Below are positions 20,251 through 42,506 of a DNA stretch of 53,996 bases, one piece after another. Within the stretch, counting starts at the first letter, position 1. The number at the start of each line of letters is the position of its first letter. Under the pieces are notes generated by a model. That model was given only the letters and a program-made list of their open reading frames with translations, had not been told where the DNA came from and did not search any database. Source of the DNA: Rubrivivax sp. (GTDB taxonomy: Bacteria; Pseudomonadota; Gammaproteobacteria; Burkholderiales; Burkholderiaceae_C); contig SEFA01000043.1 of assembly GCA_004210455.1 (NCBI GenBank), positions 1 through 53,996 on the forward strand, written 5' to 3'. The translations under genes were made by a program, and so were the position numbers.

Positions 20251-20823
20251 ATGATCGATGCCGCCCTCCTCCACATCGCCGGCCACCTCAACGCCGTGCT
20301 GCGCCGCTCGCACCAGTCGGCGGAGGACCTCGTCGCCGTGACCGCCCTGCACGAGGCCGACGGGGCGCCGGCCGCCGGCGCCGCGCACCGGCTCTGCGCC
20401 TTCCTGGTCAACCTGGAGCGCGACGCCGTCCCCGGCATGCCCTCCCCCACGTTGGGCGGCGGCGAGCGCCTGGCCCGCGTCGCCCCGCCGGTCCAGCTCA
20501 ACCTGCTCGTGATGATCGCGGCCAACTACGGCGGCAGCACCTATCCGGAGGCGCTCAAGCTGATCGGCAGCGCCATCGCCTGCTTCCAGGCGACACCGGT
20601 GCTCGACCCGCAGAACACCCCCGGGCTGGATCCGCGCATCGACAAGCTGACGCTCAACATCGAGCCGCTGGGCCTGCACGACCTGGCCACGCTGTGGGGG
20701 GTTCTCGGCGGCCGCTACGTGCCGTCGGTGCTCTACCGCGTGCGCCTGCTCTCCATCGACGCCCGCAAGCCCGACGCGCAACTGCCGTCGGTGCGCACGC
20801 CGGCCGTCGGCGTCCACGGCTGA
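20251..20823 (+). CDS. eCIS cap/terminator protein, Pvc16-like (DUF4255)
   Basis: A 190-aa protein of the DUF4255/Pvc16_N family, which caps the end of the sheath-tube and sets particle length in PVC and Afp. Hallmarks are the helical start IDAALLHIAGHLNAVLR, the strand LVNLERDAV, the block PVQLNLLVMIAANYG, then YPEALKLIGSAIACFQATPVL and the end ALWGVLGGRYVPSVLYRVRLL. The RBS before the ATG at 20251 is weak. It is the first gene of the plus-strand operon, whereas in PVC and Afp the cap gene is last, so order is rearranged. It acts in the cytosol during particle assembly. Confidence 0.9.
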   Translation: MIDAALLHIAGHLNAVLRRSHQSAEDLVAVTALHEADGAPAAGAAHRLCAFLVNLERDAVPGMPSPTLGGGERLARVAPPVQLNLLVMIAANYGGSTYPEALKLIGSAIACFQATPVLDPQNTPGLDPRIDKLTLNIEPLGLHDLATLWGVLGGRYVPSVLYRVRLLSIDARKPDAQLPSVRTPAVGVHG

Positions 20824-20839
20824 ACGGCGGGGGCACGAC

Positions 20840-21778
20840 ATGGGACCCTATCACCCGCTGCTCCAGGTGGACGTCGCCCACGGCTACTACGCCGACGGCC
20901 GCTGCCGCGGCCTGCGCTTCGTCCCGGCCGGCACCACCGCCGAGCGGCTGCGTCGCGCCGACGCGCTGGTGCGCGCCGACGGCGGCTCGCTGCGGGTCCA
21001 CGGCCCGGCCGAGGCGATCGATCGCCTGCGCTCCGACGCCGAGGACCTCTCCGGCACTTTCGAGGAAGGCGCCGCGCTGAGCTGGGCGGTCTTCGCCACC
21101 GACGACGATTTCGCCTGCGGCACCGAAGACGCCGCCGACCGCCCGCGCGAACTGCTGTGGGTGGAGCCGCCCCGCGCGGGCCATGCGGTCAATGCCGACC
21201 ATGCGGACGGCACGGTCGATGCGGTCGGCACGCTCGAGGCCCGACCGAAGGCGCTCGACGCGTCCGAACTCACCCCGCTGCTGACGCCGCACGACCGTCG
21301 CGTGATCCCCTTCGCGCTGCTGAGCCTGCCGCTGTCGCGCCTGCCCGCGCACGGCCCGTCGCGCGATCCGGCCGGCTGGCCGGTGCGCTACCGCTGGCCG
21401 CTGGCGCCGCGCGCCACGGTCTGGAAGTACTGCCTGCTGGGCGACTGGACCGAGCCCGCGCTCGCCGTCGTCGACCTGGCCGGCAAGACCGGTTTCACCG
21501 CGCCCGTGCCGGAACGCCTGGACGACGGCACGCCCATGCTGGCGATCCGTTCGCACGGCCTGGTGCCGCTGGCGCAGCGCCCGGCGCACCGGTTCCAGCT
21601 GCGCAGCCGTCCCGACGGCGCGGCCGGCGACGGCAGCGCCAGCGCGGCCCACGGGACCCCCAGGACCCACGACAAGGTGCTGATCCGCCGCCTGCCCTCG
21701 GCGGCGGCGCAACGGCTCGCCCGGGAAACGATCGCCGGCCGACCGGCGCTCGTCTCCGAGATTCACGTGCATCGCTAA
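20840..21778 (+). CDS. eCIS-associated conserved protein of unknown role
   Basis: A 312-aa soluble protein between cap and sheath. The opening YHPLLQVDVAHGYYADGRCRGLRFVP and the following RRADALVRADGGSLRVHG and SWAVFATDDDFACG segments belong to a type of hypothetical protein that I recall seeing in eCIS loci at this position; I know of no named domain. The C-terminal half has strands around WKYCLLGDWTEPALAVVDLAG and KVLIRRLPSAAAQRLARETI. Start and stop leave 16 bases from the cap gene and 18 to the sheath gene. No signal peptide or membrane helix. A role in assembly or in sheath/cap handling is only inferred from position. Confidence 0.75.
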   Translation: MGPYHPLLQVDVAHGYYADGRCRGLRFVPAGTTAERLRRADALVRADGGSLRVHGPAEAIDRLRSDAEDLSGTFEEGAALSWAVFATDDDFACGTEDAADRPRELLWVEPPRAGHAVNADHADGTVDAVGTLEARPKALDASELTPLLTPHDRRVIPFALLSLPLSRLPAHGPSRDPAGWPVRYRWPLAPRATVWKYCLLGDWTEPALAVVDLAGKTGFTAPVPERLDDGTPMLAIRSHGLVPLAQRPAHRFQLRSRPDGAAGDGSASAAHGTPRTHDKVLIRRLPSAAAQRLARETIAGRPALVSEIHVHR

Positions 21779-21796
21779 CCCGCAGAGGAGGCCGCC

Positions 21797-23413
21797 ATGG
21801 CTATGAAGACACCCGGTGTCTATATCGTCGAGAAGAATGCGTTTCCGAACTCGGTCGTCGAGGTGGCCACCGCGGTGCCCGCCTTCGTCGGCTACACCCG
21901 CCGGGCCGAGAACGGCGGCAAGTCGTTGCTGAACAAGCCCTGGCGCATCAGTTCGATGGCGGAGTACCACACCTACTTCGGCCACGGTCCCGATCCCCAC
22001 CTGACCATCGCCGAGGCGCCGGCCAACACGCGCTCGGACTTCCGCGGCGACGACAAGGACTACGCGCTGACGCAGGCCGACGGCGCCGACGGCGGGCGAT
22101 TCCTGCTGTACCACGGCATGGTGCACTTCTTCCAGAACGGCGGCGGGCCCTGCTACATCGTCTCCGTCGGTTACTACGACGGCCTGGTCGAGGCACAGAA
22201 GCTCACCGACGGCATCGACACGCTGATCAAGGAGCAGGAGCCGACCCTGCTGGTCATCCCCGACGCGGTGCTGCTCAAGCGCGCCGACTGCGTCGCGGTC
22301 CAGCAGGCCATGCTGCAGCACTGCGGCGGCCGCATGCGCAACCGCATCGCCATCCTGGACGTCTGGAACGGCTACCTGGACCGCAAGGACCCGGGCGGCG
22401 ATCCGATCGAGGGCTTCCGCAACGACCTGGGCGTCAACTTCCTGGACTTCGCCGCGGCCTACTACCCGTGGGTCAACACGACCGTGGTGCAGGACAAGGA
22501 CCTGGACTACACCCGCATCGCCAACCCCGCGCTGCTGGCCCAGCTGCTGCGCAAGGAGCTGTCGCTGCCCGACGCCGTCGACCCCGCCATGCCGCCGCGC
22601 ACCGCGCAGCAGACGCAGGCCGTGGCCGACATCGTCAAGACCGACGACGACTGGACGAAGTACGTGACCGACCTGGTCAACACCTCCACCAAGTCCGACC
22701 TCGAGAAGCAGAAGGCGCTGACGCCCGCCGCGCTCGCCGTCGCGGTGGAGACGCACAAGTCGCTGCTGCACAAGAGCCTGGTCTCGATGAGCCCGCTCTA
22801 CAACACCGTCATGACCGAGGCGCGCAACCGGCTCAACCTGCTGCCGCCCTCGGCCGCGATGGCCGGCGTCTACACCATGGTCGACAACAGCCGCGGCGTC
22901 TGGAAGGCGCCCGCCAACGTCAGCCTCAACGGCGTGGTCTCGCCCGAGGTCACGATCTCGCACGAGGACCAGGAAGACCTCAACGTCACCACGCAGGGCA
23001 AGTCGATCAACGCGATCCGGTCCTTCATCGGCGAAGGGGTGCTCGTCTGGGGCGCGCGGACGCTGGACGGCAACAGCCTGGACTGGCGCTACATCAACGT
23101 GCGCCGCACGATGATCATGCTGGAGGAGTCCTGCCGGCTCGCGTCCAAGGCGATGGTGTTCGAGCCCAACGTGGCCAATACCTGGGTGACCATCAAGAGC
23201 ATGATCTCCAGCTTCCTCACCGGGATCTGGAAGCGCGGCGGCCTCGCCGGCGCGGTCCCCGACGACGCCTTCAGCGTGCACGTCGGCCTGGGCGAGACGA
23301 TGACGCCCGAGGACATCCTCGAAGGCATCCTGCGCGTGACCGTCCTGGTCGCCATCAGCCGCCCGGCCGAATTCATCGAGATCACCTTCCAGCAGCAGAT
23401 GCAGAAGTCGTGA
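21797..23413 (+). CDS. Contractile sheath protein (Pvc2/3/4-like)
   Basis: The 538-aa tail sheath protein forms the outer contracting tube. The first residues TPGVYIVEKNAFPNSVVEVATAVPAFVGYT are the classic sheath start, and the last 140 residues (ISHEDQEDLNVTTQGKSINAIRSFIGEGVLVWGARTL, WRYINVRRTMIMLEESCRLAS, FEPNVANTWVTIKSMISSFLT) are the conserved C-terminal sheath domain that interlocks subunits. An insert of about 250 residues in the middle should face outward. GAGGAGG gives a strong RBS. Only one sheath gene is present, in contrast to the three of PVC and Afp. An 89-base gap with short A/C-rich repeats separates it from the tube gene, the longest gap in the operon. Confidence 0.97.
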   Translation: MAMKTPGVYIVEKNAFPNSVVEVATAVPAFVGYTRRAENGGKSLLNKPWRISSMAEYHTYFGHGPDPHLTIAEAPANTRSDFRGDDKDYALTQADGADGGRFLLYHGMVHFFQNGGGPCYIVSVGYYDGLVEAQKLTDGIDTLIKEQEPTLLVIPDAVLLKRADCVAVQQAMLQHCGGRMRNRIAILDVWNGYLDRKDPGGDPIEGFRNDLGVNFLDFAAAYYPWVNTTVVQDKDLDYTRIANPALLAQLLRKELSLPDAVDPAMPPRTAQQTQAVADIVKTDDDWTKYVTDLVNTSTKSDLEKQKALTPAALAVAVETHKSLLHKSLVSMSPLYNTVMTEARNRLNLLPPSAAMAGVYTMVDNSRGVWKAPANVSLNGVVSPEVTISHEDQEDLNVTTQGKSINAIRSFIGEGVLVWGARTLDGNSLDWRYINVRRTMIMLEESCRLASKAMVFEPNVANTWVTIKSMISSFLTGIWKRGGLAGAVPDDAFSVHVGLGETMTPEDILEGILRVTVLVAISRPAEFIEITFQQQMQKS

Positions 23414-23502: not shown

Positions 23503-23961
23503 ATGGCAGACGACGGATCAGCGCAATCGGCCACGGTATGGCCCCTTCCCAAGTTCCGCTTCGAAGTGAAGTGGGACTCGGCGGTGATGTCCTTCCAGGA
23601 GGTCTCCGGACTGGACGTGGAAGCGCAGCCCATCGAGTACCGGCACGGGGACAGCCCCGCGTTCTCGGTGCTCAAGATGCCGGGCATGAAGAAGTACAGC
23701 GACGTCACGATGAAGAAGGGCGTCTTCAAGGGCGACAACAAGTTCTGGGACTGGTTCAACGAGATCAAGATGAACACCATCAAGCGCAAGCCGGTGACCA
23801 TCAGTCTGCTGGACGAGGCCGGCAAGCCGACGATGGTCTGGACCCTGACCAACGCCTGGCCGACCAAGATCACCAGCACCGACCTGAAGTCCACCGGCAA
23901 CGAGGTGGCGATCGAGACCATCGTGATCGCGCACGAAGGCCTCGTCATCGCCAACGCCTGA
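23503..23961 (+). CDS. Inner tube protein (gp19 family, Pvc1-like)
   Basis: The 152-aa protein forms the inner tube propelled by sheath contraction. Family features are LPKFRFEVKWDSAVMSFQEVSGLD near the N-terminus, IEYRHGDSPAFSVLKMPGMKKYSDVTMKKG, FWDWFNEI and the C-terminal TNAWPTKITSTDLKSTGNEVAIETIVIAHEGL. Length is normal. It starts after GGAGG and its stop overlaps the next start (TGATG). It should be a major component of the particle, so the separate leader upstream may raise its expression. Confidence 0.95.
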   Translation: MADDGSAQSATVWPLPKFRFEVKWDSAVMSFQEVSGLDVEAQPIEYRHGDSPAFSVLKMPGMKKYSDVTMKKGVFKGDNKFWDWFNEIKMNTIKRKPVTISLLDEAGKPTMVWTLTNAWPTKITSTDLKSTGNEVAIETIVIAHEGLVIANA

Positions 23962-24542
23962 TGGCGGTCCCGCCCGCACCGCCGCTGCCGCCCGCGGCGC
24001 GACCGTCCGCCCGGGTGACCCGGCCGCCGGCCGCGCGACCGGCCGGCGCGACGGGGGCGCCGCCCTCGCAGGGCCCGCAGGGCAAGCAGGCCGAGGCGCT
24101 CTACCCGCCCCCGGCCTTCCATTTCGCGGTGACCTTCGGGGCCAATGCGAAGGACGCGGACGGCGCCTTCCGCGAAGTCACCGGCCTGGGGCCGGAGATG
24201 GAAACGGAAAGCGTGGTCGAGGGCGGTCAGAACGCCTTCGTGCATCAGCTGCCCAAGGCGGTGAAGCATCCGAAGCTGGTGCTCTCGCGCGGCATCGCGA
24301 CGATGGAGTCGCGGCTGCTCCTGTGGTGCCAGTCGGTGCTGGAAGGCGGACTGGCGCAGCCCATCTTCCCCAAGCAGCTGCACGTCTTCCTGCTCGACGA
24401 ACAGGGCGGGCCGCTGCGGGTGTGGTCGGTGCAGAACGCGTATCCGGTGAAGTGGTCGGTGGAGGCCTTCCAGGCCACCCGCAACGAGGTCGCCATCGAG
24501 CGCATCGAGCTGGCCTACGCCGGCTCCAGCCGGTTGATGTGA
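23961..24542 (+). CDS. Second tube protein with N-terminal Pro-rich extension (Pvc5-like)
   Basis: A 193-aa gp19-family protein. The tube domain (about residues 52-190) reads FHFAVTFGANAKDADGAFREVTGLG, QNAFVHQLPKAVKHPKLVLSRG, WSVQNAYPVKWSVEAFQATRNEVAIERIELAYAG. In front of it is a roughly 45-residue Pro/Ala/Arg-rich tail that the first tube protein lacks. In PVC and Afp the Pvc5-type tube protein sits at the baseplate end and joins the tube to the hub, the likely role here. The tail may lie in the lumen or contact the hub; that is inference. Confidence 0.92.
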   Translation: MAVPPAPPLPPAARPSARVTRPPAARPAGATGAPPSQGPQGKQAEALYPPPAFHFAVTFGANAKDADGAFREVTGLGPEMETESVVEGGQNAFVHQLPKAVKHPKLVLSRGIATMESRLLLWCQSVLEGGLAQPIFPKQLHVFLLDEQGGPLRVWSVQNAYPVKWSVEAFQATRNEVAIERIELAYAGSSRLM

Positions 24543-24560
24543 GCCAGGGCTCGACGCCCA

Positions 24561-24608: not shown

Positions 24609-24776
24609 ATGAGCATCGAAATCCGACAACTGCTGATCCGTTCGCAGGTGACGCCCGCGCCGGCGCCGCCGGCGCCCGCGATGACGCCTCGCGACCTGCA
24701 GCGGCTGCGCGAGCAGCTGCTGGCCGAATGCCGCGCCTGGCTGACCGACCGGCTGCGCGCGCAGCGGGAGCGCTGA
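24609..24776 (+). CDS. Small eCIS protein, DUF5908 family (Pvc6-like)
   Basis: A 55-aa protein. The start MSIEIRQLLIRSQV and the end RLREQLLAECRAWLTDRLRAQRER match DUF5908, a tiny family found between tube and LysM genes of eCIS loci (consensus start M-P-I-E-I-x-E-L-V-I, then a C-terminal helix). The middle is Pro/Ala-rich. ATG at 24609 has AGGA eight bases upstream, and the stop is one base from the next ATG. In related systems the position corresponds to Pvc6. Its role is not established; a short amphipathic helix would fit an adaptor at the hub. Confidence 0.85.
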   Translation: MSIEIRQLLIRSQVTPAPAPPAPAMTPRDLQRLREQLLAECRAWLTDRLRAQRER

Positions 24777-24777
24777 G

Positions 24778-25506
24778 ATGGTCGCCGCCGCGTCGTCCGC
24801 GGGCGCCTCCGGCACGAGCGGCTCGGCCGAACTGACCCGGCTGCTGCTGATGCGCTACAGCATCCAGCGTGACGGCACGATGCAGCTGGACCGCGACACC
24901 ACGTTCCAGGCGCAGATCAACCCGGCCGACTTCAGCCACAGCTTCGGCATCCACTACGACAAGAGCAAGTCGCTGGGCTCGGCGGGCGAGGAGCCCAAGT
25001 TCAGCGCGATGGACGATGAACGCGTCAACTTCAGCATCGTGCTCGACGGCACGGGCGTGGTGCCGGCCGTGGCCGGCCAGCCGCCCGACGTCAAGGGCCA
25101 GATCGCGCAGCTCAACAAGGTGGTCTACGACTACGTCGACCTCTACAGCGAGACGCCCTACACCCGCGTGCTGTGGGGCACGCTGATCTTCTTCGGACGC
25201 CTGGAGTCGCTCAAGACGCAGTACACGCTGTTCAAGCCCGGCGGCGACCCGCTGCGGGCGAAGGTGGACCTGAGCTTCGTCGGCGCGATGAGCAAGGAGG
25301 AGAACCGACGCGTGACCAGCCGCCGCTCGAGCTCGGACCTCACGCGCAGCGAGAAGCTGCTGCCCGGCGAAACGCTGCCGCAGGCCTGCCAGCGCATCTA
25401 CGGCAACCCGCTCGTCTTCCTGCAGGTCGCGCGCGTCAACGGGCTGGCCAGCGCACGCGACGTCAAGCCCGGCCAGACGCTGATCTTCCCCCCGCTGAGG
25501 AGATGA
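24778..25506 (+). CDS. LysM-type baseplate/tube initiator (Pvc7-like)
   Basis: A 242-aa protein. The N-terminal domain (about residues 15-175) has FQAQINPADFSHSFGIHYDKS, VNFSIVLDGTGVVP and VLWGTLIFFGRLESLKTQYTLFKPGGDPLRAKVDLSFVG, as in the tube-initiator family. The C-terminal 50 residues form a LysM domain (LLPGETLPQACQRIYGNPLVFLQVARVNGL, DVKPGQTLIFPP) of the T4 gp53 type, which in contractile tails links hub and wedge. A Ser/Ala/Gly-rich start precedes the fold. It is one base from the DUF5908 gene and one base before the spike gene. Confidence 0.93.
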   Translation: MVAAASSAGASGTSGSAELTRLLLMRYSIQRDGTMQLDRDTTFQAQINPADFSHSFGIHYDKSKSLGSAGEEPKFSAMDDERVNFSIVLDGTGVVPAVAGQPPDVKGQIAQLNKVVYDYVDLYSETPYTRVLWGTLIFFGRLESLKTQYTLFKPGGDPLRAKVDLSFVGAMSKEENRRVTSRRSSSDLTRSEKLLPGETLPQACQRIYGNPLVFLQVARVNGLASARDVKPGQTLIFPPLRR

Positions 25507-25507: not shown

Positions 25508-27301
25508 ATGCCCGCCGTCTCCCCGCTCCAAGAGACCGTCGGCGTCGTGTCGATCAGCGTGCTGGTCGACGGCGAGCGCCTGCCCGAAAGCGCCGACCTG
25601 ATGTCGGTCACCGTGCGCCGCGCCGCCAACACCGTGCCCAGCGCGCGGCTGGTGTTCAACGACGGCGACATGCCGGAGCGCGAGTTCCCGCTCAGCGACG
25701 CCGCCCACTTCAAGCCGGGCGCCGCGCTGACCGTGCAGGCCGGCTACGGCCAGCAGGAGGAGACCATCTTCGAAGGCCTGGTCGTGCGCCACGGGCTGCG
25801 CGTCGAGGGCGAGAACGACGCGCGCCTGATCGTCGAGTGCCGGGACAAGGCGGTGAAGATGACGGTGGGCCGCCGCAACGTGAACTACGTCGACCAGCTC
25901 GACAGCGACATCATGAGCACGCTGGCCGGGGCGCACGGCCTGGCCGCCGACGTCGAGGCGACCACGATCACCCATCCCGAGCTGGTGCAGCACTTCTGCA
26001 GCGACTGGGACTTCCTGCTGACGCGCGCGGACGCCAACGGGATGCTGGTCTCGGTCACCGACGGCGCGCTGGCCGTCGCCGCGCCCAAGGCCGCCGGCGA
26101 GGCGGCGCTCTCGGTCACCTACGGCATCGACCTGATCTCGTTCGAGGGCGACGTCGACGCGCGCCACCAGTACGGCAGCGCGATGGCGGTGTCCTGGGAT
26201 CCGAAGGCGCAGGCCGCGCTCGAAGGCACCGCCGCCGATCCCGCGACGCTGCCGGTGCAGGGCGACCTGGACACCAGCACGCTGGCTGAGGTCATCGGCC
26301 TGGCCAGCTTCCGCCTGCAGGCCGGCGCACCGCAGTCGCGCGACATGCTGACGCAGTGGGCCAAGGCCCAGCAGCTCAAGTCGGGGCTGGCGCGGCTGCG
26401 CGGCCGGCTGAGCTTCCAGGGCAGCGCCAAGGCCAAGGTCGGCGGACTGATCGACCTCAAGGGCGTCGGCAAGCGCTTCAGCGGCTCGGTCTACATCACC
26501 GGGCTGCGCCACCACATCGAGGACGGCGCCTGGACGACCGAGGCCGACTTCGGCCTCGATCCCGACTGGTTCAGCGCACGGCCCGACGTGCCGGCGCAGC
26601 CGGCCGCCGGCCTGCTGCCGCCGGTACCCGGACTGCAGGTCGGCGTGGTGATGAAGCTGGACGCCGATCCGGCCGGGGAGCAGCGCATCCAGGTCAAGGT
26701 GCCGGTGCTGCAGGCCGAGACCGAAGGCGTCTGGGCGCGGCTGCTGCAGTCGCATGCCAGCAGCGGCTTCGGCGCCTTCTTCCTCCCCGAGGTCGGCGAC
26801 GAGGTGGTGCTGGGCTACTTCGCCGGCGACCCCTCGCATCCCGTCATCCTGGGCAGCCTCTACAGCAGCAGCCGCACGCCGCCCTACGCGCTGGCTGCGC
26901 CCAACGACACCAAGGCCTTCGTCACGCGCTGCAGGCACAAGATCGAGTTCGACGAGAAGGACAAGGTCATCACCGTCACCACGCCGGGCAACAACCGCAT
27001 CGTGCTGAGCGACAAGGACAAGTCCATCCTGCTCTCGGACCAGAACGGCAACACCGTCGAGCTGAAGCCTGCCGGCATCGCGCTCGACAGCCCCAAGGAC
27101 ATCACCGTGACCGCCAAGGGGCAGATCCGGCTGGACGCGGTCGGCGCGGTGTCCATCACCTCCAAGGCCGACGTGAAGACGACCGGCCTGAACATCGGCA
27201 GCGAGGCGCAGATCGCCTTCTCCGCCAAGGGCAACGCCAGCGCGGAACTCTCGGCCGCGGGTCAGACCGTGGTCAAGGGCGCGATGGTCATGATCAATTG
27301 A
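25508..27301 (+). CDS. Spike/hub protein, VgrG-like (Pvc8)
   Basis: The 597-aa trimeric spike. The N-terminal two-thirds resemble the gp27/gpD hub (SVTVRRAANTVPSARLVFNDGD, HFKPGAALTVQAGYGQQEETIFEGLVV, HPELVQHFCSDWDFLLTRADANG, YITGLRHHIEDGAWTTEADFGLDP). The gp5 OB-fold is at about 375-450 (GVVMKLDADPAGEQRIQVKVPVLQ, FFLPEVGDEVVLGYFAGDPSHPVILGSLY), and the last 130 residues are the repetitive beta-helix (KIEFDEKDKVITVTTPGNN, LDSPKDITVTAKGQI). The C-terminus has no added effector domain. It should sit on top of the PAAR tip encoded next. Confidence 0.96.
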   Translation: MPAVSPLQETVGVVSISVLVDGERLPESADLMSVTVRRAANTVPSARLVFNDGDMPEREFPLSDAAHFKPGAALTVQAGYGQQEETIFEGLVVRHGLRVEGENDARLIVECRDKAVKMTVGRRNVNYVDQLDSDIMSTLAGAHGLAADVEATTITHPELVQHFCSDWDFLLTRADANGMLVSVTDGALAVAAPKAAGEAALSVTYGIDLISFEGDVDARHQYGSAMAVSWDPKAQAALEGTAADPATLPVQGDLDTSTLAEVIGLASFRLQAGAPQSRDMLTQWAKAQQLKSGLARLRGRLSFQGSAKAKVGGLIDLKGVGKRFSGSVYITGLRHHIEDGAWTTEADFGLDPDWFSARPDVPAQPAAGLLPPVPGLQVGVVMKLDADPAGEQRIQVKVPVLQAETEGVWARLLQSHASSGFGAFFLPEVGDEVVLGYFAGDPSHPVILGSLYSSSRTPPYALAAPNDTKAFVTRCRHKIEFDEKDKVITVTTPGNNRIVLSDKDKSILLSDQNGNTVELKPAGIALDSPKDITVTAKGQIRLDAVGAVSITSKADVKTTGLNIGSEAQIAFSAKGNASAELSAAGQTVVKGAMVMIN

Positions 27302-27320: not shown

Positions 27321-27620
27321 GTGCCGCCCGCCGCCCGCCTCACCGACCTGCACGTCTGCCCCATGTTCACGCCCGGCCTGCCGCCGATCCCCCACGTCGG
27401 CGGTCCGGTCATCGGACCTGGCGTGCCGACGGTGCTCATCGGCATGCTGCCCGCGGCCGTCGTGGGCGACAACGCGACCTGCGTCGGGCCGCCGGACGCG
27501 ATCGTGAAAGGCTCGGCCACGGTGCTGATCGGCAACAGGCCGGCGGCGCGCGTCGGGGACACCACCGCCCACGGCGGCAACATCGCGGTCGGCCTGCCGA
27601 CCGTGCTGATCGGGGGCTGA
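27321..27620 (+). CDS. PAAR-domain spike tip (Pvc10-like)
   Basis: The 99-aa protein is one PAAR domain, the zinc-stabilised cone at the spike tip. Repeated PxVLIG and PAAxVGD turns (PTVLIGMLPAAVVGD, ATVLIGNRPAARVGD, PTVLIGG) define it. Cys and His residues at DLHVCP, NATCVG and TAHGG are candidate zinc ligands. The start codon is GTG at 27321 with GGAAGGAG upstream. It has no toxin extension, so any cargo must be carried in another way. Confidence 0.95.
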   Translation: MPPAARLTDLHVCPMFTPGLPPIPHVGGPVIGPGVPTVLIGMLPAAVVGDNATCVGPPDAIVKGSATVLIGNRPAARVGDTTAHGGNIAVGLPTVLIGG

Positions 27621-35529: not shown

Positions 35530-37513
35530 ATCCGACGGCGTTTCCCCGCACCTCGTCGAGCGCATGACCATCGACGCGGACTTCGGCGCCGGCCTGGTGA
35601 ACGCTCCCGGCGCCGGACAGGGTCCGGGCATGACGCCAGGCATGACGCTAGGCATGACGCCAGGCGAGATGGAAGCGCGCCTGGTCGCCTGCGTGCAGGG
35701 GCCGATGCTGCGCGTGATCGACGAGGTCTTCGACGCCTGCTGCCCGCCCGAGGAGCACTGGCGGCTGGACGAACTGGAGATCGACCTCGGCGAACTGCCC
35801 GCCGCGGAGTGGGAAACCGAGGCGCCCCGTGTGCTGCGCAAGCGCCTGCGCCGCGTGCTGGAGGACCTGCGCGGTCCCGGCGCCACCAGTGCCTCCGGCC
35901 GGGCGACCGGCCTGCGCGTCAGCACGCGGCCGCAGGCGCGACGGGACGCGCTGCTGCATTTCCTTCGTCACGGCCGGCTGCCCTGGCAGGGACGCGGGGA
36001 CGATCCGGTCAGCCTCGCGCGGGACGCGTTGCGCGAGGACGCCGGCGCGCTCATCGCCGCGTTGCGCGTCGCACCGGACCGGGCGGTGCTGCTGCAACGG
36101 CTGTCGGCGCAATTCGACGACGACCTCCTGGGCGCGCTGGTCCACGCCTTCATGCCGGGCGAGCCGGCGGCGGCGACGCGGCTGCTCGACATCGTGGCGC
36201 AGTCCCGTCGCGACGGCCGGTCGCCGCGCACCCGCGCGGCGTTGTGGGAGTCGGTGCTCGGCCAGGCGATGGACCATGCGATCGCACCGCGACCGGCCGC
36301 GCTGATGCTGCTGCGGGCGCAGCTGCTCGCGGCGCTGGACGCCGGCGCGTCCTTCTCCAGCGGCAGCGATCCGCTGATCGCCGTCGCTCACGCGTGGGCG
36401 CCGCTGCTGCGCGAGGACCGCGACTGGCTGCGCGCCACGCTGCAGCGCGTCGGCGAGACGGCCACCGTGCGCGAGCGGCTGGTGTTGGCCTTGCCCGAGC
36501 CGCTGCTGCCGCGGCTGCTCAGCCTCTGGATGGCGGAACCCGCGGCGCAGGCCGTCGCCGCGTGGATCGCCGCGGTGGCGTCCGGCCAGGTGCCCGACGA
36601 CGCCTTGGCAGGCGCATCAGGATCGCCCGGATCCCGCATGCGCGCCCTTGGCGCCCTCGGCGCTCGCGGCGCCTCGTCCATGCATCCGACGACTTCGGCG
36701 ACCGACAGCGCGACGGTTGAAGCGCGGCGTCGCCGGCTCTGGCAGGCGACGCTCGGACACGCGGTGCGCCATCCGGCTTCGAGCTTCGATCCGGCCCGTT
36801 ACGAAGCGGAAGTCCGCGAAGACCTGGAACGGCATGCGCCGCCCGGTTCGGAGCCGCCCGCACGATGGTTCGACCGCGCCGTGCGCGCGGCCACCTCGGT
36901 GCTGGCGGCCGCGCTGAACGTGCTGCGGCTGCCATGGCGCAAGGCACCCGCCGCGCCGCGCACGTCCGAGGAGAAACGCGCCGCCGGAGCATCGGACACG
37001 GACCCGTCGAACGAGCAGATCGCCGTCGGCAACGCGGGCCTCGTGCTGGTGTCGCCCTACCTGTCGCGGCTGTTCTCGATGCTCGGTCTCGTCGACGATC
37101 GCGCCTTCGTCGGCCCGGAAGCGGCTGCGCGCGCCGCGCTGTTGCTGCAGGCGCTCGCGACCGGCCATGCGGCCGCACCGGAATCGGAGCTCGCGCTCAA
37201 CAAGCTGCTCTGCGGCCTGCCGCTGGACTCGCCGCTGCCGCGCCTGATCGACGTCTCCGATGCCGAACGCAACGCGATCGACGGCCTGATCGGCGCGGTC
37301 ATCCAGCACTGGCGCATCCTGGGCACGACCTCGATCGACGGGCTGCGCGGCAGCTTCCTGCGCCGCGCCGGCGTGCTGGAGCGTCGCGACGAAGCCTGGC
37401 AGCTCTCGGTCGAGCCGGGACCCTTCGACATGCTGATCGATCAATTGCCATGGGGCTACGCGACCGTGCGGCATCCGTGGATGGAAAGGGTGATTCATGT
37501 GGACTGGCGCTGA
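35522..37513 (+). CDS. Tape-measure protein (Pvc14-like)
   Basis: A 663-aa protein of the contractile-injection-system tape-measure family, thought to set tube length from inside the lumen. The family start HLVERMTIDADFG is at residues 10-22, and the end reads DMLIDQLPWGYATVRHPWMERVIHVDWR. Between them are long Ala/Arg/Leu-rich helices, including LRLPWRKAP near residue 475, and the LMLLRAQLLAALDAGASF segment. A PGMTPGMTLGMTPG low-complexity run sits near residue 40. The gene overlaps its upstream neighbour by eight bases and the downstream ATPase by 17 bases. Confidence 0.9.
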   Translation: MRESDGVSPHLVERMTIDADFGAGLVNAPGAGQGPGMTPGMTLGMTPGEMEARLVACVQGPMLRVIDEVFDACCPPEEHWRLDELEIDLGELPAAEWETEAPRVLRKRLRRVLEDLRGPGATSASGRATGLRVSTRPQARRDALLHFLRHGRLPWQGRGDDPVSLARDALREDAGALIAALRVAPDRAVLLQRLSAQFDDDLLGALVHAFMPGEPAAATRLLDIVAQSRRDGRSPRTRAALWESVLGQAMDHAIAPRPAALMLLRAQLLAALDAGASFSSGSDPLIAVAHAWAPLLREDRDWLRATLQRVGETATVRERLVLALPEPLLPRLLSLWMAEPAAQAVAAWIAAVASGQVPDDALAGASGSPGSRMRALGALGARGASSMHPTTSATDSATVEARRRRLWQATLGHAVRHPASSFDPARYEAEVREDLERHAPPGSEPPARWFDRAVRAATSVLAAALNVLRLPWRKAPAAPRTSEEKRAAGASDTDPSNEQIAVGNAGLVLVSPYLSRLFSMLGLVDDRAFVGPEAAARAALLLQALATGHAAAPESELALNKLLCGLPLDSPLPRLIDVSDAERNAIDGLIGAVIQHWRILGTTSIDGLRGSFLRRAGVLERRDEAWQLSVEPGPFDMLIDQLPWGYATVRHPWMERVIHVDWR

Positions 37514-38897
37514 CCCGTCGCCGCGCGCGACGACCAACGCGCGGGCCCTCGAAGCCGAACTGCAGTGGCTGGACCGCGTGCTGCAGCAGCGCCTGGCCGG
37601 GTACTTCGGGCAGGACGCCGCGGTGTCGTCGCCGCGCACCGCGGCGGATCGCGGCGAACTGCCGCTTCCCCCGCCACTGCCCGCGCCTTCGGCCGAGCCC
37701 GGGGACGACCTCTCGCGGCTGATCCATGAAGGCGATCTCGGGCCGGCCGAACGGCTGGTGCTCGCGCTGGCGCTGGCGCCGCATCTGCGTCCGCAGCTGA
37801 TGGACCTGCTCTTCGTCAGCAACCGCAACCTGGACCGCGGCTTCTGCGAATTCGGCGGCTGGAAGGGTCGCCATCACGGCGGCTTCCTGCCGACGGTGGA
37901 AACGGCGGCCTTCCTGCTCGCGGGCGAGGACCTGTCGCGACGCTTCGCGCTGCGTCAGATGCTGGACGAGACGGCGCCGCTGCGGCGGCTGGGGCTGGTG
38001 CGGCTCGCGCATGAGGCGCCGGGCGAACCCTGGTACGGCTCGGCGCTGCTGGCGGGCGCCGACACGCTGGACCTGCTGTGCACCGGTGAATCGCGCAAGC
38101 CGGACTACAGCACGCAGTTCCCCGCCAAGCTCATCGAGACCAAGCTCGGCTGGAACGACCTGGTGCTGGATCCCGACGTCATGGAAGAGGTCGAGGCCAT
38201 CATCACCTGGGCCCGCCACGGCGACGCGCTGATGCGCGACTGGCAGCTGGAGAAGGCGCTCAAGCCCGGCTACCGCTGCCTGTTCTTCGGCCCGCCGGGC
38301 ACGGGCAAGACGCTGACCGCCACGCTGATCGGCGACAAGGTCGGCGCGGACGTCTACCGCATCGACCTGTCGATGGTGGTGTCCAAGTACATCGGGGAAA
38401 CGGAGAAGAACCTCGCGCAGGTCTTCGACCAGGCGCAGCACCGGCGCTGGATCCTGTTCTTCGACGAGGCGGACGCGCTCTTCGGCAAGCGGACCGCGAC
38501 CTCCAGCAGCAACGACCGCCACGCCAACCAGGAGGTCTCCTACCTGCTGCAGCGCGTCGAGGACTTCCCCGGCACGGTGATCCTGGCGAGCAACCTCAAG
38601 GGCAACATCGACGACGCCTTCGCGCGGCGTTTCCAGTCGGCGGTGTATTTTCCGATGCCGGACGCCGAGCAGCGCCTGCGGCTCTGGGAAGGCATGGTGC
38701 GGCACACCGGGCGGCTGGACGCGGACGTCGACCTGGCCGACTTCGCCGAACGGCACGAGCTGGCCGGCGGCGCGATCGCCAACGTGGTGCGCTTCGGCGC
38801 GATCAACGCGATGCAGGCCGGACGCGACCGCATCCTGGCCGCCGACCTGCGCCGCGGCATCGCCAAGGAACTGCGCAAGGAAGGACGCACGGTGTAG
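37497..38897 (+). CDS. AAA+ ATPase (Pvc15-like)
   Basis: A 466-aa cytosolic AAA+ ATPase. Walker A is GPPGTGKT at residues 265-272, Walker B ILFFDEAD at 319-326, sensor 1 N366 in ASNLKGN, and arginine finger candidates R377/R378 in AFARRF. The N-terminal 190 residues form the family-specific region (HLRPQLMDLLFVSNRNLDRGFCEFGGWKG). In PVC and Afp the equivalent protein is needed for assembly or effector loading. Starting within the tape-measure gene, it is probably translated from the same message. Family assignment is sure; its precise action in this organism is not. Confidence 0.95.
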   Translation: MWTGADPSPRATTNARALEAELQWLDRVLQQRLAGYFGQDAAVSSPRTAADRGELPLPPPLPAPSAEPGDDLSRLIHEGDLGPAERLVLALALAPHLRPQLMDLLFVSNRNLDRGFCEFGGWKGRHHGGFLPTVETAAFLLAGEDLSRRFALRQMLDETAPLRRLGLVRLAHEAPGEPWYGSALLAGADTLDLLCTGESRKPDYSTQFPAKLIETKLGWNDLVLDPDVMEEVEAIITWARHGDALMRDWQLEKALKPGYRCLFFGPPGTGKTLTATLIGDKVGADVYRIDLSMVVSKYIGETEKNLAQVFDQAQHRRWILFFDEADALFGKRTATSSSNDRHANQEVSYLLQRVEDFPGTVILASNLKGNIDDAFARRFQSAVYFPMPDAEQRLRLWEGMVRHTGRLDADVDLADFAERHELAGGAIANVVRFGAINAMQAGRDRILAADLRRGIAKELRKEGRTV

Positions 38898-38902
38898 CCG
38901 CC

Positions 38903-41752
38903 ATGGGAACACGCTCTTCCTTCTTCCAGTCGCTGCGCCGCCGGTGGGGCGACGATGAATGGGCCGATGCCGCCGATGCCGCCGATGCCGCCGCCGACGC
39001 GAGGCCAGCGGCGCCGGACAACGCGCGACGCGCGCCATCGCCCCCCTGCCGCAACTGCGCACGGCTGCGCTGGTTCGTCGGCGGTGTGCTGCTGGCCGCA
39101 GCCTTGCTGATCCTGCACGCCAGCGCTCAATCGCCCGTGAGACCTTCCGCGCCGTCCCCGTCGCTTTCCGCATCGAAGCCGATGGGCGCGGCGCCCTCCG
39201 CGGCTTCGCCCGCGACGGACGCAACCATCGACGTCGCGACGCCGCTCGCATTGCCGCCCCGGCCAGAGCAGCCGATCGCCTCCGCTCCCCTGCCCGCCCC
39301 GGCCGCTTCAATGACCGCCTCCTCGCCTGGCCGCGACCCGATGTGGCTGGTCTACCAGACGATTCCGCTGCCGTCGGCGCGGCTGAACCGCTCATACAAG
39401 GCGCGCGATCTGGTGCGCGGCGGCAAGCCGCCGTATCGCATCGCCATCGACGGCGAACTGCCGCCCGGCATGTTCGTCGAGGAAGACGGCGCGCTCGCCG
39501 GCACGCCGACGAAGACCGGCAACTTCCGATTCCTGCTCACCGCCACCGACGCCTCGCGCACGAGGAACCTGGAACAGGCGCTCTACGAGATCCGCGTCAC
39601 CGATCCGAAGCCGGTGGCCGGGCCCGTCGGCGCTCCGGCGTCCGCGCCGTCCTCGGGCAGGCCCAAGGCCAAGGGGCCGACGTCCAATCCCCTGAAGTCC
39701 ATCACCGAGGACCAGACGAACCGCACCGTCCCGTCGGACCCGCCGATGCCGATGACCTATGTGCTCACGCAGGCGAAGCTGGACGAGATCTTCAAGAACG
39801 CGGAGGCCTCGACGAGCGCGTCGCTGGTGGTCGAGACCGCCTCGGGCGACGCAGATCCCGACGCCCGGAAGCTGCCGCCCAGGCCGATGGCGGTGGGGAC
39901 GCCCGTCCTCGGGCCGACGCTGGATCAGCTGCGCGAGATGCTGACGCCGCTGAAGGACGTGGAGCATCCGACGCGCGCGGTCTTCCAGGACTCGCTGAGC
40001 GCGATGCAGTGCGCGTACTACCTGCGCCATGTCAACGAGCTGTCGCGCGAGCTCGACCGGGACCAGGTCCAGCGTTGCCCGCGCAAGCCGGACCTGGCGG
40101 ACCGGGAGTCCGCGGAGCCGCAGGCGCCGGGGGCATCGCTGCCGGTCGAGGCGCCGCGGCGTGGCGCGGGCAGGATCGAACAGCAGATCGGCGCGGCCAT
40201 GGCAAAGCAGAAGCGGGAGGAGGCGCAGGACAAGGCGGCCGTCCCCGATCTGGTGCTGGCCCCGGGCAACCTGGCGCTGGACAGGTTCCTCGACATGCTG
40301 ATGCCGGCGCACCTGCGAGAGGAGATCACCGACGCGGCGGGCGAGACCCATCCGCTGGAAAGCGCACGGCCGCTGAACCTGGTCCCCGAGGCGGACTGCG
40401 GCTGCGGCCTCCCGGACATCGAGAACGAGGTCTACGGCTTCCTGAGCTACTGGATGCAGGGCAAGGACGACACGCCGATCCCGGTCCGGTTCGACCGGTT
40501 CACGCGCCTGCAGTACATGGGCGCCATCCTTCGCAATGACGGCAGCTACCTGCAGCCGCCCGGCCTGCAGAGCCCGCGCGGCGGGTACGCGCGGCGCGTG
40601 GCCCAGCACAGCGCCGGGCTGGACCTGGTCCTGTACCGCCGCGATTTCCATGTGCTGACGAGTCTGCCGGAAGCGCGCCGCCAGGAACTGCTGGCGACCA
40701 CCGCCGCGGGCGTCGGCGCCATGCTGGACCTGCGGCACAGCGACTGGCAGGGGGACCTGGAATTCCTCCTGCCGCCGGGATGGCGCGAGGAGGCGCACGT
40801 CTACGACGGCCTCACGGTGTTCTTCGAGCCGACGGACGAGGAGGCGAAGGATCCTCGCTTCGAGCGTTTCTTCATCGACTACGTGCAGGCCTTGCTGACC
40901 GCCATGCAGCGCCGCAAGGAGCGGGCCTTCCACCTGAACGTGGTGGTGCCGCAGCACCTGCTGGGCGAGTCGGCGACGGCGTTCCGGTTCCGGAATCTGC
41001 TTGCGATCATGAAGGCCGCGGAGCCGAGGCGGGACAAGAGTGCCGGCGTCGACTTCAAGGACCGCGGGGCCGCGGCCGCCTCCTACAAGTCGACGGACGA
41101 GTACGTCGGCAGTTCGCCCGTCACGGTGCATTTCCTCGCGCCGCTGGGCGTGGGGTCGGACATGAACAAGATGCAGCTGCGCAACCGCACGGATTTCACC
41201 GACGAGCTGAGCGGGTCCGATCGCATGGCGCTGCTCGGCAGCGTCATGCCGATGCTGGTGTATCCGGGCGGCCCGGCCGAGGCGTTCAAGGGCAAGGACG
41301 CGATGGACCGGGACATGGTCTACATCGGCTGGTCCTTCGGCGGGGTGGCGCTGTGGCCCCTGCCGGTCGCGAACGCCGGCGCGGGCGCGGATGTGCTGGA
41401 CGTGCTGCACGAACGCTTCTGGTCCTTCCTGGACCAGGACACCCGCTTCTGCAAGATCGTGTGTCCGATGCGCGTGCCGCTGCGGCTGGGGCTGGAGGCG
41501 CTGCTGGTGATCGTGGGCACGACGCTGCTGCTCTACGGCTGGAACTGCCGCGTGCGGCGCATGGGCAAGGTCATCCTGCTGGTGCTGTGGGCGGGGGCGC
41601 TGTTGACGCTGGCGATGGCCAGCGCGATCTTCTCCTGCGATCCCACGCTCAACCAGTTGAGGACGGGGAATACCTTGCTGGTGGGGATCGTCCTGCTCCT
41701 GATCGTGGGCGGGCTGATCGTCACGTTCAAGCCCCGGGTGGAGGCGCCATGA
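38903..41752 (+). CDS. Four-helix envelope protein of unknown role, eCIS-linked
   Basis: A 949-aa protein with a cytosolic N-terminus (CxxC at about 49-52), one membrane helix at about 55-75, a large extracytoplasmic region, and three C-terminal helices (about 862-882, 889-911 and 923-942). Residues 155-232 form a putative Ig (He_PIG) domain with ELPPGMFVEEDGALAGTPTKTGNF. Residues about 550-800 look like a mixed alpha/beta or barrel region (LVLYRRDFHVLTSLPEARRQ, VYDGLTVFFEP, FHLNVVVPQHL). Neighbours suggest a role in the system, for example anchoring it to the envelope or sensing its firing. It starts five bases after the ATPase stop. I know no PVC or Afp counterpart. Whether this is a general eCIS feature cannot be told here. 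Confidence 0.75.
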   Translation: MGTRSSFFQSLRRRWGDDEWADAADAADAAADARPAAPDNARRAPSPPCRNCARLRWFVGGVLLAAALLILHASAQSPVRPSAPSPSLSASKPMGAAPSAASPATDATIDVATPLALPPRPEQPIASAPLPAPAASMTASSPGRDPMWLVYQTIPLPSARLNRSYKARDLVRGGKPPYRIAIDGELPPGMFVEEDGALAGTPTKTGNFRFLLTATDASRTRNLEQALYEIRVTDPKPVAGPVGAPASAPSSGRPKAKGPTSNPLKSITEDQTNRTVPSDPPMPMTYVLTQAKLDEIFKNAEASTSASLVVETASGDADPDARKLPPRPMAVGTPVLGPTLDQLREMLTPLKDVEHPTRAVFQDSLSAMQCAYYLRHVNELSRELDRDQVQRCPRKPDLADRESAEPQAPGASLPVEAPRRGAGRIEQQIGAAMAKQKREEAQDKAAVPDLVLAPGNLALDRFLDMLMPAHLREEITDAAGETHPLESARPLNLVPEADCGCGLPDIENEVYGFLSYWMQGKDDTPIPVRFDRFTRLQYMGAILRNDGSYLQPPGLQSPRGGYARRVAQHSAGLDLVLYRRDFHVLTSLPEARRQELLATTAAGVGAMLDLRHSDWQGDLEFLLPPGWREEAHVYDGLTVFFEPTDEEAKDPRFERFFIDYVQALLTAMQRRKERAFHLNVVVPQHLLGESATAFRFRNLLAIMKAAEPRRDKSAGVDFKDRGAAAASYKSTDEYVGSSPVTVHFLAPLGVGSDMNKMQLRNRTDFTDELSGSDRMALLGSVMPMLVYPGGPAEAFKGKDAMDRDMVYIGWSFGGVALWPLPVANAGAGADVLDVLHERFWSFLDQDTRFCKIVCPMRVPLRLGLEALLVIVGTTLLLYGWNCRVRRMGKVILLVLWAGALLTLAMASAIFSCDPTLNQLRTGNTLLVGIVLLLIVGGLIVTFKPRVEAP

Positions 41753-41883
41753 ACACGCGGAGACTTCGAGCAGGACAGCGGCGAGCAGGACAGCGGCGAG
41801 CAGGACAGCGGCGAGCAGGACCGCGGCGAGCAGGACCGCGGCGAGCAGGACCGCGGCGGATCGATCACGAGAGGAGCGACTGA
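41749..41883 (+). CDS. Arg-rich 44-aa repeat peptide coupling two genes
   Basis: An ORF that starts inside the stop of the membrane-protein gene (ATGA) and stops inside the start of the DUF4157 gene (TGATG). Its product is MNTRRL, then six pentapeptides (RAGQR three times, RAGPR three times), then a short acidic-basic tail. With ends that fit both neighbours exactly, translation through it is likely. The peptide would be strongly basic and disordered. It may be a coupling device, a nucleic-acid-binding peptide or simply an expanded repeat. No homologue is recognised. Confidence 0.55.
   Translation: MNTRRLRAGQRRAGQRRAGQRRAGPRRAGPRRAGPRRIDHERSD
41768..41857 (+). repeat. Six 15-base tandem repeats
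   Basis: GAGCAGGACAGCGGC occurs three times at 41768-41812, then GAGCAGGACCGCGGC three times at 41813-41857, with no spacer. A unit of 15 bases preserves reading frame. The A-to-C change in the last three copies suggests duplication in two steps. Such arrays change copy number by slippage. Confidence 0.97.
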
Positions 41884-42506
41884 TGAAGGACTCGACCAAC
41901 GACGGCGGCGCGTTCGAGCACGCGCCCGCAGCCGCGCCGCTGCAGCGGCGTGAACAGGAAGGCGGAGAACTCTCCGCGGTGCTGGACGGATCGCCGCGGC
42001 AGCTCGCGCAGCGGCGGCGCATCGATGCGGCCTTCGGGCCGGTCGCGCAGCGCGAGACCGGTCTCGATGAGGACGAGCTGGGAACGGCTCAGGCGAAGGC
42101 GGCTCAACGCGCGACCGGCGCGCTCGACGAGGAGGAGCTGGGCACTGCGCAGGCCAAGGCCGCGCCGGTGCAGCGCCAGGAGAACCGGACCGGCATGCCG
42201 GACGGTTTGAAGTCCGGCATCGAATCGCTGTCAGGGGCGGACATGTCGGACGTCCGGGTACATCGGAACTCGTCGCAGCCCGCGCAGCTGAACGCGCTCG
42301 CCTATGCGCAGGGGAACGACATCCACCTCGGGCCGGGTCAGGAAGCGCATCTTCCGCACGAGGCCTGGCACGTCGTGCAGCAGCGCGAAGGACGCGTGCA
42401 GCCGACGATGCAGATGGCCGGCGTCGACATCAACGACGACGTCGGGCTCGAAGCGGAGGCGGATCGGATGGGGGGCAAGGCGATGAGCGTGGGGCGCTCG
42501 TCCTGA
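41883..42506 (+). CDS. DUF4157 protein (HExxH), eCIS-associated
   Basis: A 207-aa protein with the DUF4157 domain at about 100-200. The zinc metalloprotease motif HEAWH is at 159-163, in the context LPHEAWHVVQQREGRVQPT, with E190 in LEAEAD a possible third ligand. AYAQGNDIHLGPGQ is also typical. DUF4157 proteins are a common eCIS marker and often form the N-terminus of larger toxins. Here the domain stands alone at the C-terminus, behind a disordered segment with two copies of a 16-17-residue repeat (about 59-74 and 78-94, sharing DELGTAQAKAA or EELGTAQAKAA). It may process or carry effectors. It is the last gene of the coupled operon. Confidence 0.9.
   Translation: MKDSTNDGGAFEHAPAAAPLQRREQEGGELSAVLDGSPRQLAQRRRIDAAFGPVAQRETGLDEDELGTAQAKAAQRATGALDEEELGTAQAKAAPVQRQENRTGMPDGLKSGIESLSGADMSDVRVHRNSSQPAQLNALAYAQGNDIHLGPGQEAHLPHEAWHVVQQREGRVQPTMQMAGVDINDDVGLEAEADRMGGKAMSVGRSS

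What the first reader, a model, noticed from the sequence alone, without database searches (positions are those of the whole stretch)
20251..42506. Complete eCIS locus with rearranged order and one sheath gene
The plus strand carries a coupled operon with counterparts of Pvc16, sheath, two tubes, Pvc6 (DUF5908), Pvc7, Pvc8, Pvc10, Pvc9, Pvc11, Pvc12, Pvc14 and Pvc15. In PVC and Afp the cap is last and there are three sheath genes; here the cap is first and one sheath serves. A possible fibre lies between the two large baseplate genes. No integrase, capsid or terminase is present. The locus is a good candidate for an uncharacterised eCIS subtype in a chitinolytic betaproteobacterium.
Basis: partly seen in the sequence, partly recalled or inferred. 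Interest (0 to 1): 0.85.

Follow-up and report, generated by a model that had tools for sequence, protein, structure and literature searches.

The report
Contractile injector with own membrane partner
The bacterium carries a complete, intact set of genes for a phage-tail-like molecular syringe of a known type, plus a large membrane protein that travels with such syringes in many relatives and may dock them at the cell's own envelope.

Summary
In detail: 20251-42506 (+) is one tightly packed, intact operon for a contractile injection system (CIS). The claimed novelty (cap first, one sheath) is ordinary. The unlabelled second gene is the cap adaptor Cis16B, the gene between the two large baseplate genes is Cis13, and the order matches the Anabaena thylakoid CIS and 22 of 40 fetched relatives. 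It belongs with AlgoCIS, tCIS and SalCIS, in a Roseateles-like genome.

In 399 order-level and 398 phylum-level genomes, strong matches to its C-terminal half occur only beside CIS genes (14 and 5 genomes). Three Bacteroidota CIS plasmids carry a shorter GH18 protein with three C-terminal helices. A homologue has a PDB entry (9r9a, 'Uncharacterized protein').

Best reading: a clade Ib-type CIS that docks at, or fires through, the producer's own envelope, rather than a plainly released eCIS. The machine is well supported; docking is inference.

The parts
16474..20010 (-). Divergent regulator candidate: winged helix (Trans_reg_C) + nSTAND1 NTPase + one hydrophobic stretch (659-677) + weak TPR, 1178 aa
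   Evidence: Pfam nSTAND1 5.7e-79, Trans_reg_C 1.9e-16; hydrophobicity; found in the same divergent place in 8 of 40 loci
20251..20823 (+). Cis16A cap (Pvc16 N-terminal domain only, 190 aa)
   Evidence: Pfam Pvc16_N 1.3e-32
20840..21778 (+). Cis16B cap adaptor, 312 aa
   Evidence: no Pfam hit and no useful PDB hit alone; family profile hits PDB SalCis16b 2.8e-21, AlgoCIS cap adaptor 1.7e-09, All3326 2.2e-08
21797..23413 (+). Cis2 sheath, 538 aa
   Evidence: Pfam; PDB 9r9h_T 7.5e-207, AlgoCIS 7adz 2.5e-107, All3325 1.1e-95
23503..23961 (+). Inner tube protein (Cis1/Cis5 family)
   Evidence: Phage_T4_gp19 2e-49
23961..24542 (+). Second tube protein (Cis1/Cis5 family)
   Evidence: Phage_T4_gp19 1.4e-36
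24609..24776 (+). Cis6 / DUF5908, 55 aa
   Evidence: Pfam 1.8e-12
24778..25506 (+). Cis7 (CIS_tube)
   Evidence: Pfam 1.2e-40
25508..27301 (+). Cis8 VgrG-like spike
   Evidence: Phage_base_V 2.5e-22; vgr_GE 1.3e-59
27321..27620 (+). Cis10 PAAR tip
   Evidence: PAAR 1.8e-23
27622..28062 (+). Cis9 gp25 baseplate wedge
   Evidence: GPW_gp25 9e-24
28059..32021 (+). Cis11 baseplate protein, 1320 aa
   Evidence: PDB 9rce_A 6.9e-118, All3317 5e-76, AlgoCIS 2.3e-56
32018..32818 (+). Cis13 tail-fibre-like protein, 266 aa, no transmembrane stretch by hydropathy
   Evidence: family profile hits All3316 (residues 1-46) 3.4e-05 and fibre protein bd2133 3e-07; hydrophobicity
32815..35529 (+). Cis12 baseplate protein, 904 aa (GTG start overlapping the Cis13 stop; an ATG at 32734 in the same frame is the alternative)
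   Evidence: PDB All3315 8.7e-62, SalCis12 3.6e-59, AlgoCIS 4.2e-56 (searched from 32734); start inspected
35522..37513 (+). Cis14 tape measure protein
   Evidence: CIS_TMP 3.7e-104
37497..38897 (+). Cis15 AAA ATPase
   Evidence: AAA 2.3e-28
38903..41752 (+). Conserved CIS-associated membrane protein: N-terminal TM, Ig (He_PIG), GH18-like barrel, three C-terminal TM
41883..42506 (+). Small eCIS_core/DUF4157 protein with HEAWH motif; no other Pfam domain
   Evidence: Pfam 5.8e-13; motif
42559..44019 (+). PI-PLC-X protein (start 42559 or 42610); possible lineage-specific cargo or an unrelated secreted enzyme
   Evidence: Pfam 3.6e-06; 3 of 30 related genomes match, only in the C-terminal part

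Best explanation
The operon encodes an intact CIS of the AlgoCIS/tCIS/SalCIS type (clade Ib type). Shown by sequence: a full set of cap, cap adaptor, sheath, tubes, spike, baseplate, short fibre, tape measure and ATPase, with no broken frame. Inferred: particles assemble in the cytoplasm and are recruited to the producer's own inner membrane by the 949-residue protein. Its four predicted helices hold it in the inner membrane, and its Ig and GH18-like domains stand in the periplasm, where the barrel would bind (in the window's family probably not cut) wall glycan. This fixes or licenses the site where the particle fires, outward through the envelope in a T6SS-like way or as a stress-triggered event like Streptomyces CisA. 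The divergent wHTH-STAND protein is the likely switch. Cargo is unknown; the DUF4157 protein and the next-door PI-PLC are candidates.
For: Machine. Membrane protein: in 40 genomes found through the sheath, 29 match it at E<=0.001, two of these (G037, G040) only in the Ig stretch. With the C-terminal profile A4, 15 of 399 genomes of the order match: 14 are among the 21 with the CIS tape measure gene, one is a marginal 68-residue match elsewhere. In the phylum sample 5 of 398 match, all among the 10 with a CIS_TMP match. In all 17 distinct genomes with both, the two matches lie on the same contig and strand, 1.2-3.0 kb apart. The full-length profile hits PDB 9r9a_B over two collinear stretches, 1e-35. 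Hydropathy finds three C-terminal stretches in 22 of 24 members and an N-terminal one in 18 of 24. GH18-like barrel: hhalign 64% against ten GH18 domains and 92% against three GH18 proteins of Bacteroidota CIS plasmids; two unrelated CIS families as controls gave 0.1 and 0.2%. Those Bacteroidota GH18 proteins also end in three hydrophobic stretches, 3 of 3, and are encoded next to or in the CIS cluster. dN/dS 0.43 against R. noduli, so constrained. Precedent for membrane factors: CisA (PMC12237407, passages), Hbor_38620 (PMC11566945, passages), Cis13 helix in tCIS (PMC8894136, passages).
Against: No structure prediction could be run and no localisation data exist. Only about 50 residues plus short loops are predicted cytoplasmic, little for gripping a baseplate. 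7 of 21 CIS genomes of the order and 5 of 10 of the phylum sample (one of the 10 below the family's cut-off) lack the profile match, so CIS in general do not need it. In some searches only the best 3 or 4 first-look candidates per genome were scored, so copies without a CIS could have been missed. AlgoCIS, of the same type, is reported never anchored and is recovered from supernatant (PMC8894135, passages). The GH18 link is weaker against a second GH18 set (23%) and against the Aureibacter protein alone (1.7%), and Pfam reports no GH18 among the matches of 24 members. In 9 Bacteroidota relatives no GH18 frame was found in the fetched flanks, which do not cover whole clusters, and none of these 9 genomes matched A4.
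Confidence: 0.55

Rival explanations
1. Ordinary eCIS released by lysis; the membrane protein helps particles leave by opening or loosening the wall (a release factor), not by docking.
For: GH18-type barrel in the periplasm; Persicobacter CIS GH18 proteins keep DGLNIDFE, close to the catalytic DxxDxDxE; the PDB homologue reads DGITLDID, keeping an acid at the sixth place; AlgoCIS precedent for release (PMC8894135, passages).
Against: In the window's family the fourth and sixth places of the motif are not acidic in 23 of 23 rows, so hydrolysis by the GH18 mechanism is unlikely; four membrane helices and an Ig domain are more than a lysin needs.
Confidence: 0.2
2. Cytoplasmic self-directed CIS (like Streptomyces): stress makes particles contract at the own membrane and kill the producer; the membrane protein is a functional analogue of CisA.
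For: CisA is a membrane protein encoded in the CIS cluster and needed for contraction and function (PMC12237407, passages); a STAND-type regulator would suit stress sensing (inference).
Against: Streptomyces CIS are type IId, a different lineage; no Gram-negative example known to me (recalled); CisA homology could not be tested here.
Confidence: 0.15
3. R-type tailocin or prophage remnant.
For: Sheath, tube and baseplate genes are phage-derived.
Against: No capsid, terminase, integrase, holin or endolysin among 39 window proteins scanned with Pfam; CIS-only genes present; the phage sheath matches listed first are 20.5% identical over 62% of the query.
Confidence: 0.02
4. The membrane protein is a neighbour unrelated to the CIS.
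For: It evolves faster than the structural genes measured (73% identity to R. noduli against 85-99%, Cis7 at 66% excepted).
Against: 5 bp after the ATPase gene; tied to CIS loci in two surveys.
Confidence: 0.04

Closest known systems
SalCIS (PDB 9r9h, 9r9i, 9r9n, 9rce; chain names 'SalCis12', 'SalCis16b - cap'; no paper found)
   Same: Best-scoring solved sheath, Cis11 and cap adaptor; PDB 9r9a, with a neighbouring code, holds a homologue of the 949-aa protein (that it belongs to SalCIS is my inference)
   Different: Source organism and mode of action unknown to me; its membrane-protein homologue is only distantly related (found by profile; 0.25 with the single sequence)
tCIS of Anabaena (PMC8894136, passages)
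   Same: One sheath, cap of 16A + 16B, order 16B-sheath-...-Cis11-Cis13-Cis12 by locus tags; DUF4157 effectors
   Different: Anabaena anchors by a transmembrane helix in Cis13 and an extension of Cis12 and has Cis19; the window's Cis13 has no such stretch and there is a separate membrane protein
AlgoCIS of Algoriphagus (PMC8894135, passages), subtype Ib
   Same: Short cap Alg16A, cap adaptor Alg16B
   Different: Reported in the cytoplasm and never anchored; no such membrane protein in the passages seen
PVC / Afp (subtype Ia)
   Same: Shared core set
   Different: Several sheath proteins (Pvc2-4, Afp2-4); longer two-domain cap (PMC8894135, passages); much weaker sequence matches
CisA (Streptomyces) and Hbor_38620 (haloarchaea)
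   Same: Membrane proteins encoded with CIS clusters; CisA required for contraction, Hbor_38620 proposed anchor (passages)
   Different: CisA is bitopic, Hbor_38620 has six predicted helices; no Ig or GH18-like part mentioned in the passages seen; homology not tested here

Membership tests
CIS of the AlgoCIS/tCIS type (clade Ib type) | Short cap 16A plus separate cap adaptor 16B | tested here: met
CIS of the AlgoCIS/tCIS type (clade Ib type) | One sheath gene | tested here: met
   one sheath frame in the operon
CIS of the AlgoCIS/tCIS type (clade Ib type) | Order Cis11-Cis13-Cis12 (as in tCIS) | tested here: met
CIS of the AlgoCIS/tCIS type (clade Ib type) | Groups with clade Ib in a tree with published clades | not tested
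   reference sequences were not held; only pairwise PDB scores
Extracellular CIS (eCIS) | Complete core gene set without head or packaging genes or T6SS membrane complex in the locus | tested here: met
   39 window proteins scanned
Extracellular CIS (eCIS) | Particles free in the cytoplasm, released, and acting outside | not testable with these tools
   needs microscopy
Extracellular CIS (eCIS) | No dedicated membrane anchor | tested here: inconclusive
   a conserved membrane protein is encoded in the operon; anchoring itself not shown
Type VI secretion system | TssM (IcmF) gene with the machine | tested here: not met
   the single TssM match lies on another contig, C170, so the genome has a separate T6SS gene
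R-type tailocin / prophage | Phage-type lysis, capsid or packaging genes | tested here: not met
   none among 39 window proteins by Pfam; 7 by PHROGs gave only families of unknown function
GH18 (for the 949-aa protein) | GH18 barrel fold | tested here: inconclusive
   hhalign 64%, 23%, 92% and, for single proteins, 91.5% and 1.7%; no GH18 among Pfam matches of 24 members
GH18 (for the 949-aa protein) | Catalytic DxxDxDxE motif (recalled consensus) | tested here: not met
   fourth and sixth acids absent in 23 of 23 rows; first D in 19, eighth D or E in 22

The most novel reading that the evidence does not exclude
Across Pseudomonadota and Bacteroidota there is a class of clade Ib-type CIS that is not simply released but works through a dedicated inner-membrane, periplasmic GH18-family protein. 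Probably an enzyme in some lineages and a degenerate glycan binder with an added Ig domain in Burkholderiales, it sites the machine at the cell wall, as a wall-reading docking platform unrelated to the T6SS membrane complex.
Probability: 0.3. Interest if true: 0.75.

Novelty: new variant of a known kind. Interest (0 to 1): 0.5.

Why it matters
How a cytoplasmic CIS comes to be released, anchored or fired at its own cell is open for most gene clusters. A protein that marks one CIS subset, sits in the envelope and seems to share a wall-enzyme fold gives a direct, testable handle: its presence could predict mode of action, as proposed for Hbor_38620 in haloarchaea (PMC11566945, passages). Roseateles includes cultured type strains, so the test is feasible. 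As a gene cluster alone, the locus is an ordinary member of a widespread family.

Tried and rejected
Prophage or tailocin: rejected. Novel gene order: rejected. Pfam Baseplate_J search of the own genome gave nothing although Cis11 and Cis12 are clear by PDB sequences, so that family is a poor marker here. PI-PLC as a conserved CIS gene: rejected (3 of 30 genomes match, only in the C-terminal part and on other contigs than the CIS in R. noduli); lineage-specific cargo is not excluded. Cis7's low identity to R. noduli (66%, dN/dS 0.84) was checked for a hidden frameshift; an alignment of seven proteins shows a normal protein with a variable C-terminal part. Plasmid and phage copies of the membrane protein: the listed matches (10 of 30 plasmid records, 1 of 1 phage record) cover only its Ig stretch. 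Papers: none held both 'contractile injection system' and 'Roseateles'; searches for SalCIS and its PDB codes brought no CIS paper with them; the ten papers listed (other genus names) and the ten (GH18 terms) did not hold the CIS term. These searches cover one open library, and only the listed rows were seen.

Limits of counts: profile A4 (23 rows) was built from the CIS loci and the window; three hits (G109, G294, G264) have the same coordinates as places of G023, G015 and G035, whose genomes gave rows to it. Only the best 3 or 4 first-look candidates per genome were scored. The order and phylum samples share G000 and G055. Related genomes are not independent, so the Fisher values (7e-20, 3e-09) overstate certainty. 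Only 25 of the 40 genomes were re-searched with A4 (13 of 25 matched; none of the 9 Bacteroidota; also not G012, G021, G024, which match by the sheath only). The GH18 profile contained the Persicobacter psychrovividus and Aureibacter proteins, so their hits there are by construction. The plasmid search for the sheath listed 15 of 118 records; I fetched five of them (four Bacteroidota records, three of which have the GH18 gene; the fourth, Parabacteroides, is annotated with a partial CIS; and Pararhizobium, which has no annotation).
Full report
What is there. The window lies on contig C174 of a 6.3 Mb genome. Its sheath is 98% identical to that of Roseateles noduli HZ7, 90-91% to R. cellulosilyticus, R. 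chitinivorans and Mitsuaria sp. PDC51, and 64-82% in other Roseateles records. From 20251 to 42506 the plus strand carries seventeen consecutive intact open frames; six of the sixteen junctions overlap and the other gaps are 1-130 bp. Pfam names eleven structural or ATPase genes and the DUF4157 gene. The proteins that Pfam does not name were resolved by comparison with solved structures: 28059-32021 is Cis11 and 32815-35529 is Cis12. With family profiles, 20840-21778 is the cap adaptor Cis16B, and 32018-32818 is Cis13: its first 46 residues match All3316 and its middle part a fibre protein. The CIS tape measure family is found at this one place in the own genome.

What kind it is. Sheath, Cis11 and Cis16B score best against SalCIS, then against AlgoCIS and the Anabaena tCIS, and only then (sheath, Cis11) against PVC and Afp; for Cis12 the tCIS protein is marginally ahead of SalCIS. 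Cap first with a single sheath is a feature of that group: the PDB locus tags All3326, All3325, All3317, All3316, All3315 run in the window's order, and the paper names the operon all3327-all3315 (PMC8894136, passages). [quoted passage not shown] Of 40 fetched relatives, 22 show all twelve genes from 16A to Cis13 in the window's order; the rest are cut short, lack a detectable small or divergent gene, are rearranged (for example L032, L036, L039), or match by the sheath only (L012, L021, L024). Annotated Bacteroidota records also have the run DUF4255-hypothetical-sheath-tube-tube.

The overlooked gene. 38903-41752 begins 5 bp after the ATPase gene and encodes 949 residues. Hydropathy gives one helix at 57-75 and three near the C-terminus (858-876, 891-909, 924-942). 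Charges around them fit a short cytoplasmic N-terminus and about 780 periplasmic residues (my reading). Pfam sees only an Ig domain (in 13 of 24 members). The single sequence reaches PDB 9r9a_B (864 aa, 'Uncharacterized protein') only at 0.25, but the family profile reaches it at 1e-35 in two collinear stretches.

Is it tied to CIS? In 399 genomes of the order, 21 have CIS_TMP and 15 match the C-terminal profile: 14 in both, and one marginal 68-residue match outside. In 398 genomes of the phylum, 10 have a CIS_TMP match (one below the family's cut-off) and 5 the profile, all within the 10. In all 17 distinct genomes with both, the match lies on the same contig and strand, 1,237-3,046 bp downstream of the tape measure match. 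Seven of 21 and five of 10 CIS genomes lack it. Only the best 3 or 4 first-look candidates per genome were scored, and part of the profile comes from these very genomes (see Tried and rejected). The gene is under constraint but drifts faster than most of the machine (dN/dS 0.43 overall, 0.35 in the C-terminal helices).

What the periplasmic part is. The conserved blocks (YGFxPxW, FSxFTRLxYMG, DLVLYRRDW, DGxTVFFE/D, LNLVVP) run like the first strands of a GH18 barrel (my reading). hhalign of the 23-row profile gives 64% against ten GH18 domains, seven of them from the same genus, 23% against a second GH18 set, and 0.1 and 0.2% against two unrelated CIS families as controls. The fourth and sixth acids of the catalytic motif are missing in 23 of 23 rows, while the PDB homologue reads DGITLDID. 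Independently, annotated CIS plasmids of Persicobacter psychrovividus and Aureibacter tunicatorum carry 'glycosyl hydrolase family 18' genes, next to the cap gene in the first and directly after the second tube gene in the other; Persicobacter sp. JZB09 has a 70% identical copy about 9 kb from its sheath match. All three end in three hydrophobic stretches, and two of the three pass the same threshold at the N-terminus. As a set they match the window's family at 92%, the P. psychrovividus protein alone at 91.5%, the Aureibacter protein alone at 1.7%. Both Persicobacter proteins read DGLNIDFE, Aureibacter DGIVFDFI. P. psychrovividus also has an nSTAND1 protein near the GH18 gene, and the window has an nSTAND1-wHTH protein divergent to the operon, as do 8 of 40 relatives. 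I read this as a recurring accessory set: CIS, membrane GH18-type protein, STAND protein. It is not universal: the fetched flanks of 9 other Bacteroidota relatives showed no GH18 frame.

How it most likely works. Shown: gene content, intactness, conservation and association. Inferred: membrane topology (hydropathy only), barrel fold, docking role, switch by the STAND regulator. The protein sits where the producer's own envelope must be crossed or sensed, so a purely released eCIS is not the natural reading. Membrane factors are known for other CIS: contraction and function of the Streptomyces CIS depend on CisA (PMC12237407, passages), Hbor_38620 goes with haloarchaeal CIS thought to have a T6SS mode (PMC11566945, passages), and a helix in Cis13 anchors tCIS (PMC8894136, passages). 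The window's Cis13 has no such stretch, which fits a separate anchor. Against it stand the small cytoplasmic part and the unanchored, released AlgoCIS (PMC8894135, passages). A release role is the main rival.

Surroundings. Left and right flanks hold chromosomal metabolic and regulatory genes (acyl-CoA dehydrogenase, EAL domain, TonB receptor, FAD-binding hydroxylase, MarR), with a tRNA-Val at 83-159. The genome has a TssM match on contig C170. In 18 of 19 fetched stretches a DUF4157 match lies downstream of the membrane gene, and what lies beyond differs between many species (my reading), consistent with a variable cargo end.

Verdict. A real, complete CIS of a known type in a Roseateles-like bacterium; the order is not new. 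The membrane protein is the part worth study; a homologue already has a PDB entry, so others may be working on it. I found no paper on it in the searches listed.

Noticed in passing
42559-44019 (+): PI-PLC-X domain protein right after the DUF4157 gene, with a signal-peptide-like start (my reading) and the motifs PGTHDS and HHG; no match beside the CIS of R. noduli.
   Followed up: partly
16474-20010 (-): wHTH-nSTAND1-TPR protein with one hydrophobic stretch, head-to-head with the CIS operon and found there in 8 of 40 relatives; an nSTAND1-WD40 gene also sits in the Persicobacter CIS region (L159 12926-15967).
   Followed up: partly
24778-25506 (+): Cis7 differs strongly from R. noduli (66% identity, dN/dS 0.84) although its direct neighbours are 87% and 94% identical; the C-terminal part is the most variable.
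   Followed up: partly
contig C170 of the own genome, 6547-7464: A TssM (IcmF-related) match points to a separate type VI secretion system in the same genome.
   Followed up: no
38903-41752, residues 49-54: A CxxCxR motif starting 8 residues before the first membrane helix is found in 11 of 24 aligned members, at the same distance in each.
   Followed up: no
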